Shown here: positions 4,408 to 8,870 of the stretch, piece after piece
Layout: the number at the start of each line of letters is the position of its first letter
Numbering within the stretch: the first letter of the stretch is position 1
From: Treponema sp.
Lineage (GTDB): Bacteria; Spirochaetota; Spirochaetia; Treponematales; Breznakiellaceae
NCBI GenBank assembly: GCA_031278025.1
Contig: JAITLF010000108.1
Coordinates: 1-9,184, forward strand
Direction of reading: 5' to 3'
DNA: 9,184 bases
Position numbers and translations under genes: made by a program
Notes under the pieces: generated by a model
The model's input: the letters and a program-made list of their open reading frames with translations, nothing else
Database searches by the model: none
Told to the model about the DNA's origin: nothing

Positions 4408-6105
4408 TTAGAACTTCAGGACGCTCGTGTCGTAATCCGCCGGGGGCGTGTAGCCCAGAAGCTGTATACACGTAGCCGCTATCGAGCTTATCCCCAGGCC
4501 CTCGTTAAGGGAGCTTGCTCCCAGGGAGCTTGCTCCCAGGGAACCTTCTCCCGCCGTCCGGGGATATTCACCCTTGTATTCGGGATCGTAGATGACGCAC
4601 GGCACGGGGTTCAGACTGTGGCTGGTCTTAGCTTTGGGACTTCCGTCGGCTTTACGGCTTACCGCTCCCGTCTTCTTGTCGTGTTCGAACATATCATCCG
4701 AATTTCCATGATCCGCGGTGATCACCAGAATCCCGCCGGCCTCGTCAACCGCTTTCACGAGCCGGCCCAGTTGTATGTCCATGCCTTCCATGGCACAAAC
4801 CACCGCCTGGTAGATCCCGGTGTGGCCCACCATGTCGCCGTTTGGGTAGTTAAGCCTGATAAAATCGTACTTCCCCGATCCCAGGGCTTCAATCACCCGG
4901 TCGGTAATTTCCGCGCATTTCATCCAGGGCCGCTGTTCAAAGGGAACCACGTCGCTCTTGATCTCCACGTAGTCTTCAAGCGTTTCATCGAACTTGCCGG
5001 TCCGGTTGCCGTTGAAGAAGTAGGTAACATGGCCGTACTTTTGGGTTTCCGAAATCGCCAGGGTTCTGACCCCCGCCGCGGCCAGGTATTCCCCCATGGT
5101 CCGGTCTATGGCCGGGGGGCTTACCAAATAGCGCTTGGGAACGTGGGTATCCCCGTCGTACTCCATCATGCCGGCGTAGCAGACTTTGGGCCGCCTGCCC
5201 CGGTCAAATTTGCCGAAGGCGTCTTCCTCGAAGGCGGCGGTAATCTCCAAGGCCCGGTCCCCCCGGAAGTTGAAGTAGACGACCGAATCCCCGTCTTCTA
5301 TGGCGCCTACCGGCTTTCCGTTCTCGGCTACCACGAATTCCTTAAGGTCCTGATCGATGATGCCGGGAATCTCCTTCCGGCAGGTTTCCACCGCTTCCCT
5401 GGCGCCCGCAAACTGCCGCCCTTCGCCATGAACGTGGACCTTCCAGCCCCGTTCCACCATAGCCCAGTCCGCGCCGTACCGGTCCATGGTGATCCACATG
5501 CGCCCGCCCCCGGAGGCGATGCGGGCGTCAAAGCCGCCGGTATTGGCCGCTTTCAGGAACGCCTCAAAGGGGTCCAGGTATTCCAGGGCGCTGGTTTCGC
5601 CCACATCCCGGCCGTCAAACAGCACATGGACCCGGACCTTCCCTACCCCCGCTTCTTTGGCTTTAAGGATCATGGCTTTAAGGTGATCCAGATGGCTATG
5701 AACATTGCCGTCGGAAAAGAGGCCGATAAAGTGAAGGGCCCCCCCATGCCCCGCGGCGTTGGAAACGATCTCCTGCCACGCGGGACCTTCAAACAGGGCC
5801 CCGGATTCGATGGACAAGGAAACAAGGGCGGCCCCCTGGTTGAAAACCCGCCCGCAGCCCATGGCGTTGTGGCCCACCTCGCTGTTCCCCATGTCGCCGT
5901 CGGAAGGCAGCCCCACCGCCTTTCCGTGGGCCTTGAGTTTTGTATGGGGACTCTTTGATTTAACCGCATCTAAATGGTACATTTTGGCATCCGCGACCGC
6001 ATCGCCTTCGGCATATTTACCGTACCCTACGCCGTCCATGATGACCAGGGTTACCGGCCCCCGGCGGCCCTTCCACGCGGGATTTTTCTTTAAGGCATCA
6101 ACCAT
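4408..6105 (-). CDS. gpmI: 2,3-bisphosphoglycerate-independent phosphoglycerate mutase, long plant-type form
   Basis: A 565-residue enzyme interconverting 3- and 2-phosphoglycerate in glycolysis, using two Mn ions and a phosphoserine. Visible motifs: VIMDGVGYG with metal ligand Asp24; GDMGNSEVGHNAMGCGR with nucleophile Ser75; FSDGNVHSH with His136; FDGRD (163-167); GGGRMWITMDRYGADW; NFRGDRA; ETQKYGHVTYFFNGN; YPNGDMVGHTG; and the C-terminal metal site ITADHGNSDDMFEH with TSHSLNPVP. The motif spelling and length resemble the plant-type branch more than the roughly 510-residue E. coli or Bacillus type. AAGGAG (minus strand, 6116-6111) five bases before the ATG fixes the start. Near residues 523-533 a duplicated palindromic insert reads GASSLGASSL in a loop just before the conserved C-terminal helix. 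Confidence 0.97.
   Translation of the reverse strand: MVDALKKNPAWKGRRGPVTLVIMDGVGYGKYAEGDAVADAKMYHLDAVKSKSPHTKLKAHGKAVGLPSDGDMGNSEVGHNAMGCGRVFNQGAALVSLSIESGALFEGPAWQEIVSNAAGHGGALHFIGLFSDGNVHSHLDHLKAMILKAKEAGVGKVRVHVLFDGRDVGETSALEYLDPFEAFLKAANTGGFDARIASGGGRMWITMDRYGADWAMVERGWKVHVHGEGRQFAGAREAVETCRKEIPGIIDQDLKEFVVAENGKPVGAIEDGDSVVYFNFRGDRALEITAAFEEDAFGKFDRGRRPKVCYAGMMEYDGDTHVPKRYLVSPPAIDRTMGEYLAAAGVRTLAISETQKYGHVTYFFNGNRTGKFDETLEDYVEIKSDVVPFEQRPWMKCAEITDRVIEALGSGKYDFIRLNYPNGDMVGHTGIYQAVVCAMEGMDIQLGRLVKAVDEAGGILVITADHGNSDDMFEHDKKTGAVSRKADGSPKAKTSHSLNPVPCVIYDPEYKGEYPRTAGEGSLGASSLGASSLNEGLGISSIAATCIQLLGYTPPADYDTSVLKF
4508..4542. repeat. Tandem 15-bp palindromic repeat inside gpmI
   Basis: AGGGAGCTTGCTCCC occurs twice in direct succession (4508-4522 and 4523-4537) followed by a partial third copy AGGGA (4538-4542). 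Each unit contains the perfect palindrome GGGAGC-TT-GCTCCC. Being a multiple of three it keeps the gpmI frame and adds five residues per copy (LGASS type) to a surface loop. Confidence 0.9.
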
Positions 6106-6349: not shown

Positions 6350-6751
6350 TTAAAGGGTATACGTTTTCGGGCCTTCGGCAGCGGTGAAAGTCTCTATCGT
6401 TTCCACATCAAGATAAAAAATTTTAAAAACCGGGTTGTCGGGGGTTTTGTAGATTTCTTTAATGCCGGGATTTTCCTCAAGGGCGCGGGTCTTAAGCCCG
6501 ATATCCTCCACAAAAACAGCGCTGCCGTTAACCGACAGCACCAGGGAAAAATCTTTGGCGCAGGTGCAGAAGGATGCCTGCGGGTTTGCCGTCAACTGGG
6601 CATAAACCGATTTCCCGCTGTTGGTACAAAAGTAAACTTTTTTTCCGTCAGCAAAAAGAAACTGGAAGACCCGCGTCTTAACCTTTGCGCCGTCCTGGGT
6701 TGCGAAAACCCCTGCGGGATTTTCCTTAAGAATTGGTTCAAAATTGAACAT
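6350..6751 (-). CDS. Pyridoxamine 5'-phosphate oxidase-like FMN-binding split-barrel protein
   Basis: A 133-residue single-domain protein. NPAGVFATQDG near residue 11, then VFQFLFADGKKVYFCTN, KSVYAQLTANPQASFC, a NGSAVFVED strand and a C-terminal VFKIFYLDVETIE strand match the small PNPOx-like split-barrel family. Members bind flavins (FMN, F420 or haem in relatives) and act as flavin reductases or oxidoreductases; true PdxH is longer, so vitamin B6 synthesis is not implied and the substrate is unknown. GAGGAG six bases before the ATG supports the start. The gene has its own promoter with an operator-like dyad and is closed by a strong hairpin, so it appears to be a single, regulated transcription unit. 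Confidence 0.85.
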   Translation of the reverse strand: MFNFEPILKENPAGVFATQDGAKVKTRVFQFLFADGKKVYFCTNSGKSVYAQLTANPQASFCTCAKDFSLVLSVNGSAVFVEDIGLKTRALEENPGIKEIYKTPDNPVFKIFYLDVETIETFTAAEGPKTYTL

Positions 6752-6774
6752 GCCATACTCCTCAAATGCTTTAT

Positions 6775-6793
6775 TGTAACGTTATATGTTACA
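6775..6793. promoter_or_regulatory. Operator-like dyad TGTAAC-N7-GTTACA
   Basis: A perfect 6-bp inverted repeat with a 7-bp spacer (centre to centre 13 bp) lies immediately downstream of the -10 hexamer of the split-barrel gene, across the expected start site near 6792. Position and symmetry fit a dimeric repressor site. The cognate regulator is not in the window. Confidence 0.6.
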
Positions 6794-6798
6794 CCGCC

Positions 6799-6827
6799 AT
6801 GATAACACGATACTGATGCAATGCCAA
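6799..6827 (-). promoter_or_regulatory. Sigma-70-type promoter of the split-barrel gene
   Basis: On the minus strand TTGGCA (6827-6822) and TATCAT (6804-6799) each match the consensus at five of six positions, with an optimal 17-base spacer. This is the best promoter pair in the window. The leader would be about 40 bases. Confidence 0.7.
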
Positions 6828-6837
6828 CAGGCGCACT

Positions 6838-6855
6838 AAAAAGCTCAGGCTTTTT
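6838..6855. terminator. A/T-armed hairpin, possible bidirectional terminator
   Basis: AAAAAGC-TCAG-GCTTTTT is a perfect 7-bp stem whose outer arms give a five-T run in either direction. It lies just upstream of the split-barrel promoter and may insulate it from the accessory stretch. Only two G:C pairs, so strength is doubtful. Confidence 0.4.
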
Positions 6856-6947
6856 CCCGCGTGATTTTGTGTGATGCGGTACATTTGATTAGCCCGCAGT
6901 ATCGCTGCGCTTTGAACGGGCGCATTCCCGCGGACGGGGCCGTGAAA

Positions 6948-7090
6948 GCCGCCGTGCATCCGGCGGTAACGGCCAGGCGGTAATTCCCGCCTGCCGGGGC
7001 GCCAGCCCCTTCCGCGGGGCATACGGTCCGTCTTTATTTGCGTGATTTTAACCGGGCGGCTCTGCCAAAGCAGGCCGTTTTGCCGCCCGG
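6948..7090. other. Cluster of GC hairpins, no recognised gene
   Basis: Between the split-barrel promoter and the 21-bp array (about 6856-7117) I find no supported gene. It holds perfect inverted repeats CCGCCG-N6-CGGCGG (6949-6966), CAGGCGG-N6-CCGCCTG (6974-6993) and the 9-bp pair CCGGGCGGC (7052-7060) with GCCGCCCGG (7082-7090), whose loop contains a smaller CTGC-CAAA-GCAG stem. A 10-bp direct repeat GCGTGATTTT occurs at 6859-6868 and 7040-7049. These may be decayed coding DNA or repeat remnants; a structured RNA is possible but I recognise no family. Confidence 0.45.
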
Positions 7091-7117
7091 CGGGCAGTAT
7101 CCTACCCCCCGCGGAAA

Positions 7118-7505
7118 CCGGCTTGCCCCCGGACACGTCATTTTTGCCCCCGAACGCTCCATTGCTGATCAAGAATGCCCCATTGCTGATCAAGAATGGA
7201 GCATTCCTGATCAAGAATGCCCCATTCCTGATCAGGAACGCTCCATTCTTGATCAGGAACGCTCCATTTCTGATCAGGAATACTCCATTTTTGCCCCCGA
7301 ATGGTCCATTTTTGCCCCCGAATGCTCCATTTTTGCCCCCGAATGCTCCATTTTTGCCCCCGAATGCTCCATTTTTGCCCCCGAATTTCGCGTTCGGGAC
7401 TTTGAACGGGGCGCGGCTGTTCCCGAATATTTCATTTCTGCCCCCAAAACAGGGCGTTTTTGCCCCAAATACCCCGGTTTTGCCCCAAAATTCGGCATTT
7501 GGGCC
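7118..7505. repeat. 21-bp tandem repeat array with palindromic TGATCA units
   Basis: The core (7139-7390) is twelve contiguous 21-bp units in perfect phase, each beginning with CATT. Units 2-7 (7160-7285) carry TGATCA at 7166, 7187, 7208, 7229, 7250 and 7271; units 1 and 8-12 carry TGCCCCCGAA instead. Unit 5 contains the perfect 14-bp palindrome TTCCTGATCAGGAA. Degenerate units extend to about 7118 on the left and 7505 on the right. No unique spacers separate the repeats, so it is not a CRISPR. Because 21 is a multiple of three and the unit has no stop, long frames are open on both strands, encoding heptads such as NGAFGGK and NGAFLIR (minus) or APFLPPN and APFLIRN (plus). Whether either is translated is unknown. 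It abuts the kinase relic. Confidence 0.95.
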
Positions 7506-7549
7506 TGAGAAGGGGGCGCCCGGACATCCGCCCGCCTTGCGCCCGTACC

Positions 7550-8476
7550 CGTGCCGGGGGTTTGGGACTTGGCGCGGGAGAGGAACCGGTTCTGAAACGG
7601 CGCGCGGCGGGCGCATACAAAATCCTGGAGTCAGGTTTGTCCCGGTACCGGATTTTGAGGAGGCAGGGGCAGCCCTTCAGGCAGTCCGGTTCTTCCCGGC
7701 GGGGTGCCAGCCGCCGGAAAGTACCCGCGGCATACCGGAGCGGGGAGGCCGCGTGTTTCGCAGGGCCCGCGGCTCACCTCGTCATGGTTTACCACTCCCG
7801 GCGGGATATGGCGCTCAGGACATTGCAGACAAAGCGGGGATTAACCCAGGCCCGGCGCGCGTCGAATTCCGCCTGAAGGTGGAGGAGGCCCATCTGTTCT
7901 TCCCGGCGGCGGACATAGTTCTGGCGTTTCAGCCGATCATGCTAACGGTTACCGGGTTGGACAAATTCATCATCGGCCGCGTCAATGACCGCCCGTGATC
8001 GGGGCCATTATCGGGGCCGTGATCGGGGCTGAGATCGGGGTTGTCCAAATTCGTCTGCCCTATCCGGGTGATAAGCTGCCCGATGGGCGCGGTTACCCGG
8101 AGGGGCACGAGGCGGATCACCAGGATAGATACCAGGCCGATACCCAGGGCCATCATGACGGCAGCCAGGATGATGCCGCTGCCCGCCGCAGTCATAGCCC
8201 TGCCCCGGATAGCCGCCGTATACGTGCCGGTATACGCGGAATAGCAGGAAGCGGCAATGTTCCCGGCCGCCCGGCTGACGGCCCGTTCCCGCAGCCCGCC
8301 GCCGCCTGCAGCCGGCGAAAGGAGGGGGGCATTGGCGGGGCCGCCGCATTGGGAATAGAACAGCTCCCCCCGTCCGGTGATCACCGCCTTGACCGCGCCG
8401 TCCCGGTTAAGGCGGGCGAGTCCTCCAGGCCGCGGATTTTTGCGGGAAACCGCGGAAAATCAATACTGAACTGCCC
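7550..8476 (-). pseudogene. Degraded YesM/LytS-type membrane sensor histidine kinase
   Basis: Reading the minus strand and changing frame several times gives a recognisable kinase. From 8473: SIDFPRF in one frame, then RDGAVKAVITGRGELFYSQ in the next (sensor domain remnant); a membrane segment GIILAAVMMALGIGLVSILV (about 8177-8120); a HAMP region APIGQLITRIG, 12-bp repeats, then in another frame VIDAADDEFVQ and RLKRQN; then REEQ-GLLHLQAEFDA and WVNPRFVCNVLSAISRR (about 7845-7800), matching the LQAQ-NPHF-YNVL phospho-acceptor block; NHDEV in a further frame; and LRYAAGTFRR, REEPDCLKG and KIRYRDK (7740-7636). The acceptor His is Arg (codon 7836-7834). At least four frameshifts, in-frame stops (for example 7945-7943 and 7791-7789) and loss of the ATPase domain show it is dead. 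The 21-bp array takes over where the ATPase domain should follow. Family assignment is by motif memory only. Confidence 0.65.
7993..8040. repeat. 12-bp tandem repeat, four units, in the kinase relic
   Basis: Four contiguous units, CCGTGATCGGGG (7993-8004), CCATTATCGGGG (8005-8016), CCGTGATCGGGG (8017-8028) and CTGAGATCGGGG (8029-8040). They fall in the HAMP part of the pseudogene and would add DHGP/DNGP tetrapeptides in frame; a frame change follows directly. Confidence 0.85.
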
Positions 8477-8690
8477 CGCTGCGGCGGCACATGCGCTTTA
8501 ATAGAGGGCGTGTAATGGCCGGCAAAATGCAGGCGGCGTGAGCCGTGCGAATGTTCGCCAACGATGTTGGTGCGCGCAGCGATTGTGCCGGGTGAACGCA
8601 GGGGCCTTTAGGCCCGGTGATGCGCAATATTTTATATCCAAATTTGTCGTCCCCGGCGCCCCCCGCGGCGCCTGAAATTTTCTCCCCCTT
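8477..8690. other. Intergenic stretch with several hairpins
   Basis: No gene is supported here. Inverted repeats include CGCCAAC-GAT-GTTGGTG (8556-8572, one G:T pair), GGGCC-TTTA-GGCCC (8602-8615) enclosed by ATTGTGC/GCGCAAT (8582-8588 and 8621-8627, one G:T pair), and GGCGCC-CCCCGC-GGCGCC (8655-8672) followed on the plus strand by TGAAATTTTC. The enclosed pair could fold as one structure of about 45 bases. REP-like repeat or small RNA are both possible; I recognise neither. Confidence 0.4.
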
Positions 8691-8733
8691 TCCGTGTTAT
8701 TGACATATTATCCGTTTTGAAACAGCATCGGGA

Positions 8734-8763
8734 TTGAACTTATATGAGAAAACCTTGTATAAG
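8734..8763 (+). promoter_or_regulatory. Candidate promoter for the MATE gene
   Basis: TTGAAC (8734-8739, four of six) and TATAAG (8758-8763, five of six) are 18 bases apart, giving a start near 8770 and a leader of about 100 bases. A consensus TTGACA at 8700-8705 has no good -10 at the right distance. Confidence 0.45.
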
Positions 8764-8831
8764 AGCGTCATCGGAGGGGGCGTAATCGTAATTACCGCAC
8801 CGACAAGATGCCAAGTGAGCTTGGAAATTCT

Positions 8832-8855
8832 TGCCGGTATTTTTTTATCCCGGCA
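8832..8855 (+). promoter_or_regulatory. Leader hairpin just before the MATE ribosome binding site
   Basis: TGCCGG (8832-8837) pairs with CCGGCA (8850-8855) around a T-rich 12-base loop, ending four bases before AGGAG at 8860-8864. Its position could influence translation initiation or cause pausing. There is no evidence of a ligand-binding fold. Confidence 0.35.
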
Positions 8856-8870
8856 TAGCAGGAGATCATT

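What the first reader, a model, noticed from the sequence alone, without database searches (positions are those of the whole stretch)
7193..7249. An inverted cassette inside the array
The 15 bases between TGATCA sites 2 and 3 (7193-7207), read as reverse complement with the flanking cores, match the segment between cores 4 and 5 (7235-7249) at 26 of 27 positions. Other segments are in the usual orientation. Since the core is its own reverse complement, recombination or template switching between cores can flip a segment without disturbing the phase. That would make the array a stack of invertible cassettes.
Basis: partly seen in the sequence, partly recalled or inferred. Interest (0 to 1): 0.7.

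Follow-up and report, generated by a model that had tools for sequence, protein, structure and literature searches.

The report
Flipped spacer in palindromic repeat array
One of the 21-base repeats between genes of a Treponema-like bacterium reads backwards in its middle, most likely because DNA copying briefly jumped to the wrong strand at a hairpin rather than because a switchable cassette was flipped; the array resembles others in related genomes that keep a fixed spacing while their sequence differs.

Summary
In detail: 7193-7207 with its cores matches 7235-7249 in reverse complement at 26 of 27 positions; 0 of 300 column-shuffled arrays reach that. The 'invertible cassette' reading does not hold. 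The repeat is an 18-bp quasi-palindrome (CATTCC-TGATCA-GGAATG) plus a 3-nt spacer, so orientation rests almost wholly on the spacer. The two segments are arms of one hairpin around a CCC loop (7187-7219/7223-7255, 31 pairs). A related array in another Treponema MAG (L001) has CTC where the window has GAG, with the same edges. A 3-nt spacer flip, or a 3-5 base copy from the other arm, reproduces the window segment exactly; a whole-segment flip leaves two mismatches. That is the known signature of template switching at quasi-palindromes. L001 also carries a 32/33-base inverted copy. Beyond the finding: in the related genomes sampled, 30 of 36 noncoding arrays have period 21 or 23, with many unrelated units, and 34 of 42 testable genes of an unnamed 'DWLPG' family have a 21- or 42-bp repeat within 450 bp upstream. 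The window array is of this type but has no such gene beside it. Its function is unresolved.

The parts
7124..7396 (.). tandem array, period 21 bp, about 13 units
   Evidence: TRF and phased listing; best repeat lag of the window is 21 at 0.96 identity
7145..7291 (.). quasi-palindromic block: six TGATCA units plus one edge unit; unit = CATTCC-TGATCA-GGAATG (with variation) + 3-nt spacer
   Evidence: phased listing; units 7166-7291 align with L001:79-204 in the same order
7292..7386 (.). block of the same array with TGCCCCC in place of TGATCA
   Evidence: phased listing; weakly similar to arrays upstream of DWLPG genes in G028 and G001
7193..7207 (.). segment called the inverted cassette; its spacer GAG is 7199-7201
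   Evidence: L001 counterpart has CTC with the same outer edges
7235..7249 (.). partner segment; its spacer CTC 7241-7243 pairs with GAG 7199-7201
7187..7255 (.). long hairpin: 33-nt arms 7187-7219 and 7223-7255 (31 pairs, 2 mismatches), loop CCC 7220-7222
   Evidence: DNA fold of 7187-7256: -30.3 kcal/mol, 0 of 200 dinucleotide shuffles as stable; L001 counterpart -24.0 with an open internal loop at the spacer
7442..7490 (.). degenerate repeat to the right of the array, period about 20
6350..6751 (-). neighbouring gene, pyridoxamine 5'-phosphate oxidase family (context only)
   Evidence: PF01243, 40.2 bits
8871..9182 (+). neighbouring gene start, MatE family (context only)
   Evidence: PF01554, 33.2 bits

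Best explanation
The array is a 21-bp tandem repeat whose TGATCA units are quasi-palindromes separated by 3-nt spacers. When single-stranded it can fold into hairpins centred on spacers or cores, and into one long hairpin centred on CCC 7220-7222. During replication a polymerase briefly switched template within such a hairpin and copied 3 to 5 bases from the opposite arm, or read the spacer from the other strand. This turned an ancestral CTC at 7199-7201 into GAG and made the two long arms match. Shown: the inverted match, the hairpin potential, the related array with the other spacer, and the exact fit of a 3-nt event. Inferred: the replication event itself, its direction, and that the array otherwise grows and shrinks by ordinary slippage or recombination between direct repeats. 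No invertase and no on/off switching is needed.
For: Inverted match beyond independent-mutation shuffles, 0 of 300. Window and L001 units align in one order, best register 118/146; among the six aligned units the only run of three adjacent differences is the spacer. From an L001-like 15-mer, a 3-nt flip or a 3-5 base copy from the other arm gives 0 mismatches, a whole flip 2, no event 3. The window hairpin lacks the internal loop seen in L001: -30.3 against -24.0 kcal/mol. L001 holds a second, larger inverted copy, 32/33 bases, 0 of 300 shuffles. Eight of 23 period-23 arrays in related genomes have an inverted match reached by 5% or fewer of 60 shuffles. Arm homogenisation and short spacer inversion by template switching are documented in yeast genes, four of ten with 3-bp spacers (PMC8604942: abstract, introduction and one results section read), and template switching creating and mending hairpins in PMC8794818 (abstract and opening text seen).
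Against: The register with L001 is favoured only moderately (0.808 against 0.762 one unit away and 0.755 on the reverse strand), and the flanks are not alignable, so unit-to-unit descent is not certain. The ancestral 15-mer takes the array-wide T where L001 has a private G. The TGATCA block alone is not clearly more stable than column shuffles (4 of 60 as stable) or than unit permutations (15 of 60). Within-unit arm covariation is not a general property: 1 of 14 palindromic arrays at P<=0.05, and over all 76 arrays 8 at P<=0.05 against 7 at P>=0.95. Only 2 of 21 period-21 and 2 of 23 period-23 arrays show an inverted-match excess at the 0.02 level. In the yeast paper spacer inversions were seen only on arms over 9 bp; here the 12-bp local arms have one mismatch (read from the sequence), although one yeast event (REG2) started from 5-bp arms.
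Confidence: 0.67

Rival explanations
1. Inverted gene conversion or duplication: a whole unit like 7235-7249 was copied in reverse into position 7193-7207.
For: 26 of 27 match; L001 shows that inverted copies of over 30 bases do occur in this kind of array.
Against: A copied tract of 7 bases or more leaves one mismatch, because the partner's C at 7239 is also present in the L001 counterpart and so is probably old. This is the same chemistry as the best explanation with a longer tract.
Confidence: 0.13
2. Independent point mutations in the three spacer bases.
For: Spacers do vary (CTC, CCC, GTC and others).
Against: At the divergence outside this unit (12 of 105 sites, the poorly aligned edge unit left out) three given adjacent sites changing to the three given bases has a probability of about 5.5e-5, 3.3e-4 over six units; 0 of 300 column shuffles reach the match.
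Confidence: 0.1
3. Selection for a long RNA hairpin, for example a terminator or a stabilising structure, kept compensating changes.
For: DNA and RNA folds are far more stable than dinucleotide shuffles (z -9.4 and -7.4); five terminator-like sites against a shuffle mean of 1.9, two of them this hairpin on the minus strand.
Against: Palindromic tandem units give much of this stability on their own: 4 of 60 column shuffles of the TGATCA block are as stable. The minus-strand tail is ATTCTTGATC, not an unbroken run of T. No Rfam match at gathering scores.
Confidence: 0.06
4. Site-specific invertible cassettes between TGATCA cores.
For: The cores are palindromic and the phase is kept.
Against: The edges of the segment did not flip with the spacer; segments of 15-21 bp cannot form a synaptic loop (recalled); direct repeats of the same site would be deleted as readily; no recombinase among the three window ORFs scanned with Pfam, the other ORFs and the rest of the genome not having been scanned for one.
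Confidence: 0.02
5. The array encodes a seven-residue repeat protein.
For: Period 21 keeps frame; minus-strand ORF 6789-7616 is open; one metagenome protein, P0093, has similar FLIRN/FLIKN heptads.
Against: Only that one partial hit (E 2.2e-20, 40% of the query), though only the 7994 candidates sharing most words were scored; a stop-free period keeps frames open by itself; other arrays with period 23 cannot be coding in this way. Variation by codon position was not informative.
Confidence: 0.02

Closest known systems
Template-switch mutation at quasi-palindromes (arm homogenisation and spacer inversion)
   Same: clustered adjacent changes equal to the reverse complement of a hairpin spacer or of the other arm; 3-bp spacer; other bases unchanged
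   Different: here it lies in an intergenic tandem array of palindromic units, where every unit and every pair of units is a possible hairpin
Bacterial minisatellite / VNTR arrays
   Same: head-to-tail copies of a short unit with mosaic variation
   Different: in one survey of related genomes 30 of 36 noncoding arrays had period 21 or 23 while unit sequences fall into many unrelated families; 21- or 42-bp repeats lie upstream of 34 of 42 testable genes of one family
Phase-variable invertible DNA (invertons)
   Same: pieces in both orientations bounded by palindromic sequence
   Different: no recombinase shown, segments far too short, edges not flipped, no evidence of mixed orientation in a population
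REP/BIME intergenic palindromes
   Same: intergenic, palindromic, multi-copy
   Different: here the copies are strictly tandem with a fixed period and differ from array to array (comparison recalled, not tested)

Membership tests
Template-switch event at a quasi-palindrome | an inverted repeat spans the changed bases | tested here: met
   33-nt arms (31 pairs) around CCC; 12-bp local arms with one mismatch around GAG (read from the sequence)
Template-switch event at a quasi-palindrome | several adjacent changes equal the reverse complement of the spacer or of the other arm | tested here: met
   CTC to GAG, 0 mismatches for a 3-nt event
Template-switch event at a quasi-palindrome | ancestor and descendant otherwise identical by descent | tested here: inconclusive
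   L001 aligns best in one register but the margin is moderate and the flanks differ
Phase-variable invertible DNA | the whole bounded segment is reversed | tested here: not met
   a whole-segment flip leaves 2 mismatches, a spacer flip none
Phase-variable invertible DNA | both orientations coexist in one population | not testable with these tools
   no reads held
Phase-variable invertible DNA | dedicated recombinase nearby | tested here: inconclusive
   none among the three window ORFs scanned with Pfam; the genome of the window is not held
Minisatellite | tandem copies with a constant period | tested here: met
Minisatellite | copy number differs between relatives at the same locus | tested here: inconclusive
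   L001 has a different set of units but its flanks are not alignable
DWLPG-gene leader array | a 21-bp array shortly upstream of a DWLPG gene | tested here: not met
   no tblastn match of 14 DWLPG-family proteins in 6751-8870 at E up to 1, although the array is similar in unit and period
Coding heptapeptide repeat | homologous proteins | tested here: inconclusive
   one partial, repeat-only metagenome hit

The most novel reading that the evidence does not exclude
The window array belongs to a period-locked class of intergenic arrays in Treponema relatives. Some unidentified ruler, either a copying enzyme or a factor that reads spacing rather than sequence, holds the repeat at exactly 21 or 23 bp while the units turn over completely and keep a tendency to be palindromic. 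The 21-bp form is a standard leader element of DWLPG genes, and template switching between its palindromic units is one way in which new units arise.
Probability: 0.35. Interest if true: 0.75.

Novelty: new variant of a known kind. Interest (0 to 1): 0.48.

Why it matters
The flip itself is a clean natural example of template switching in a bacterial repeat array, and it warns against reading short inverted pieces of palindromic repeats as invertible switches. The wider point is the fixed period. If arrays with unrelated sequences are held at 21 or 23 bp across related genomes, and a 21-bp array lies upstream of most members of one gene family (34 of 42 tested), then something may measure spacing without reading sequence. 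None of the papers listed in five searches for such arrays (listings and starts of abstracts seen, lists capped at 10 to 15) describes this in title or abstract start.

Tried and rejected
Plasmid collection, blastn at E 1e-5: no match. Viral contigs, exact pattern: none. Rfam at gathering scores: none. The exact pattern hit one contig of the genome collection, L001. Synteny of the PNPOx gene: matches in 9 of 39 genomes of the genus, not pursued. No 21-bp array in the 12 fetched gpmI neighbourhoods (best lag-21 identity 0.48). Phased operator array for a DNA-binding protein: considered and dropped as a general account, because unit sequences differ between arrays too much for one protein and 23 bp is not a whole number of helical turns (recalled). 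Strong palindromicity of every unit: not supported, only 4 of 49 and 5 of 17 unit families at P<0.05, although the means exceed all 500 shuffles. General arm covariation within units: not supported. The model of the DWLPG protein (helices plus a C-terminal part whose Foldseek matches are mostly Fn3 domains, along with POMGNT2 chains) gave no hint about the arrays.

Full report
OBSERVATION. The TGATCA cores lie at 7166, 7187, 7208, 7229, 7250 and 7271, 21 bp apart. The five inner segments were compared in both directions: 7193-7207 and 7235-7249 match 9 of 15 directly and 14 of 15 in reverse complement, 26 of 27 with the cores. The coordinates and the count in the finding are right. Chance must be judged against the palindromic make-up of the unit, so letters were shuffled within columns among units. 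Over 7145-7291 none of 300 shuffles reached 26/27 (mean 22.6, max 25); with a 21-base window the match was 20/21 and 2.3% of shuffles reached it. The effect is real, but it rests mostly on three neighbouring bases, GAG at 7199-7201.

ANATOMY. Each unit is CATTCC-TGATCA-GGAATG, with variation, plus a 3-nt spacer (CTC, CCC or GAG). The array runs on to the right with TGCCCCC in place of TGATCA. The two segments named in the finding flank the same centre: the repeat finder gives an inverted repeat with arms 7161-7219 and 7223-7281, 83% complementary, 3 nt apart. The fold of 7187-7256 as DNA is one hairpin with 33-nt arms, 31 pairs and loop CCC 7220-7222, -30.3 kcal/mol, 0 of 200 dinucleotide shuffles as stable; 7160-7291 gives z -9.4 and the minus-strand RNA of 7145-7396 z -7.4. 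Part of this follows from the units alone. Against column shuffles 7145-7291 is more stable (0 of 60 as stable; 2 of 60 unit permutations) but the six TGATCA units alone are not clearly so (4 of 60; 15 of 60 permutations). Of the 16 stretches tested in that call, 7 had no column shuffle as stable (window 7145-7291, L001 59-268, L112, L122, L098, L072, L075); L046 was less stable than nearly all of its shuffles (59 of 60 as stable or more so).

A RELATIVE. A pattern scan of genome contigs returned one contig, JAITIC010000066.1, 'Treponema sp. isolate Pcl387_bin1' (L001). Its array L001:79-204 aligns with window 7166-7291 unit by unit; the best register over the slightly longer stretch compared matches 118 of 146, against 112 of 147 one unit away and 111 of 147 on the other strand. 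The edge unit 7145-7165 matches only 9 of 21 and was left out of the divergence count. The flanks do not align, so descent of individual units is likely but not proven. At the unit in question L001 has AGAATGCTCCAGTCC and the window AGAATGGAGCATTCC. In the other five aligned units the two differ at 12 of 105 sites, with no other run of three adjacent differences. Taking T for L001's private G, a 3-nt spacer flip, or a 3-5 base copy from the other arm, gives the window segment exactly; a tract of 7 or more from the other arm leaves one mismatch; a whole-segment flip leaves two; no event leaves three. The L001 counterpart of the hairpin has an open internal loop at the spacer and -24.0 kcal/mol. 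L001 itself has a GAG unit elsewhere, within an inverted copy of 32 of 33 bases between the two ends of its array (0 of 300 shuffles), although over its inner stretch 80-226 alone the 27-base match is not significant (11% of shuffles).

MECHANISM. These are the two known products of template switching at quasi-palindromes: arms made alike and spacers reversed. PMC8604942 (abstract, introduction and one results section read) reports ten spacer inversions in yeast genes, four with 3-bp spacers, on arms longer than 9 bp, one of them from an ancestor with 5-bp arms; PMC8794818 (abstract and opening text) describes template switching creating and mending hairpins. For generality the evidence is mixed. 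With 60 shuffles each, an inverted-match excess at the 0.02 level is seen in 2 of 21 period-21 arrays (the window and L001) and 2 of 23 period-23 arrays; at 0.05 it is 2 of 21 and 8 of 23. Within-unit arm covariation is seen in 1 of 14 palindromic arrays at P<=0.05; over all 76 arrays the mean z is 0.42, with 8 at P<=0.05 and 7 at P>=0.95. So the event is explained, but a general flipping process is not shown.

RIVALS. Site-specific inversion is disfavoured by the unflipped edges and by segment length. Independent mutation is disfavoured by the shuffles and by a rough probability of 3.3e-4 over six units. A coding reading is disfavoured by a protein search that found one partial metagenome hit, P0093, made of the same FLIRN/FLIKN heptads; that protein suggests a further TGATCA-type array in a metagenome contig, whose DNA was not seen. 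A terminator is possible but lacks an unbroken T run.

WIDER SETTING. In the 39 genomes of L001's genus the window array has matches in 2: the L001 array and a weak second one in G001, and a weak one in G028; the two weak ones lie directly upstream of genes of an unnamed family starting DWLPG. Two members have no Pfam match at E 0.01 (one given in part). The fold model (pLDDT 93.6) has an N-terminal helical part and a C-terminal part whose matches are mostly Fn3 domains. In the genus loci printed, the arrays end within some tens of bases of the start codon. The 450 bp upstream of each gene were tested for the best repeat lag between 10 and 59. Of 30 genus loci, 20 had an intact start and at least 150 bp upstream, and in 16 the best lag was 21 or 42. 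Of 30 loci fetched out of 55 matches in a phylum search of 392 genomes, 25 were testable and 21 had best lag 21 or 42. Three loci occur in both sets, so 34 of 42 distinct genes; identities at the best lag run from 0.60 to 1.00. The exceptions are L030, L032, L040, L049, L151, L160, L166 and L167; of these L049, L151 and L160 have a best lag of 14 and L167 of 44. The family search itself found DWLPG matches in 14 of 39 genus genomes and 12 of 392 phylum genomes.

Survey of larger stretches: in 1,317,769 bases from G001, G002, G020 and G028, 65 arrays were found. Of the 36 not inside a long ORF, 23 have period 23 and 7 period 21, the other six being 10, 12, 14, 14, 24 and 45; 21 of the 23 period-23 arrays are in G020, and six of the seven period-21 arrays lie on contigs fetched for their DWLPG genes. 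The 29 inside long ORFs have mixed periods, most often 69 (10) and 21 (5). In 157,082 bases of G457 there were 20 arrays: nine of period 23, six of 21, one each of 42, 63, 14, 22 and 25 (16 of the 20 outside long ORFs); in 275,176 bases of G538 five arrays, three of 21, two of these inside long ORFs. These two genomes were chosen because they had hits; contigs 1-20 were taken in order. A small control of 74,199 bases from eight other spirochaetes held three arrayed places, with best lags 14, 18 and 12. In the family, 14 of 195 genomes have arrays similar to the window's; 8 of the 17 loci inspected have a DWLPG match within the locus. Grouping 68 arrays of period 21 and 35 of period 23 gives 49 and 17 distinct unit families; mean palindrome scores exceed all 500 shuffles in both (6.14 against 5.46 and 7.18 against 5.98), but individually only 4 of 49 and 5 of 17 reach P<0.05. 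The window array shares period, unit and palindrome with this class but has no DWLPG match in 6751-8870.

NOVELTY. The flip is a new instance of a known process. A class of arrays with a locked period was not described in the title or abstract start of any paper listed by the searches (lists capped at 10 to 15; no full text read for this point); subscription journals are mostly not in that library. That such organisms live in termite guts is recalled, not a tool result. Whether the period reflects selection on spacing, a mutational ruler or shared history cannot be decided here, and the census is too small and too biased towards genomes with hits to settle it.

Noticed in passing
L029, L031, L033-L038, L043, L044, L046, L050-L053, L056, L148-L150, L152-L155, L161-L165, L169-L177 (450 bp upstream of the gene; L154, L165, L172 repeat L044, L051, L056): Best repeat lag 21 or 42 bp upstream of 34 of 42 testable distinct DWLPG-family genes; in the genus loci printed the units look unrelated between genes.
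   Followed up: partly
L090-L125 (G020), L205-L214 (G457): Many intergenic arrays of period exactly 23 bp in several unit families (CACTATAGNCTATAGTG, TTGTACAA, GCATTGGTGTGAGATCGCGTCAA and others), dispersed next to unrelated genes.
   Followed up: partly
L178:1470-2099: Composite array of about five near-adjoining blocks with unrelated units, all with period 21 (blocks counted by eye).
   Followed up: no
L001:65-266: The ends of the L001 array are inverted copies of each other (32 of 33 bases); L001:59-268 folds as one large hairpin, z -14.3.
   Followed up: partly
L095, L096, L108, L110, L112, L116, L125: Several CACTATAG-type 23-bp arrays start alike (TTCATCATTCAGCC..., or CTGATACAAAGTTCCTGCC...), as if they were one interspersed element (by eye).
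   Followed up: no
7993-8040: A short tandem repeat of period 12 (TGATCGGGGCCA) within the minus-strand ORF 7929-8384, which has no Pfam match.
   Followed up: no
4508-4552: Three copies of a 15-bp repeat AGGGAGCTTGCTCCC (the third imperfect) inside the gpmI-like reading frame, adding GASSL-type residues.
   Followed up: no
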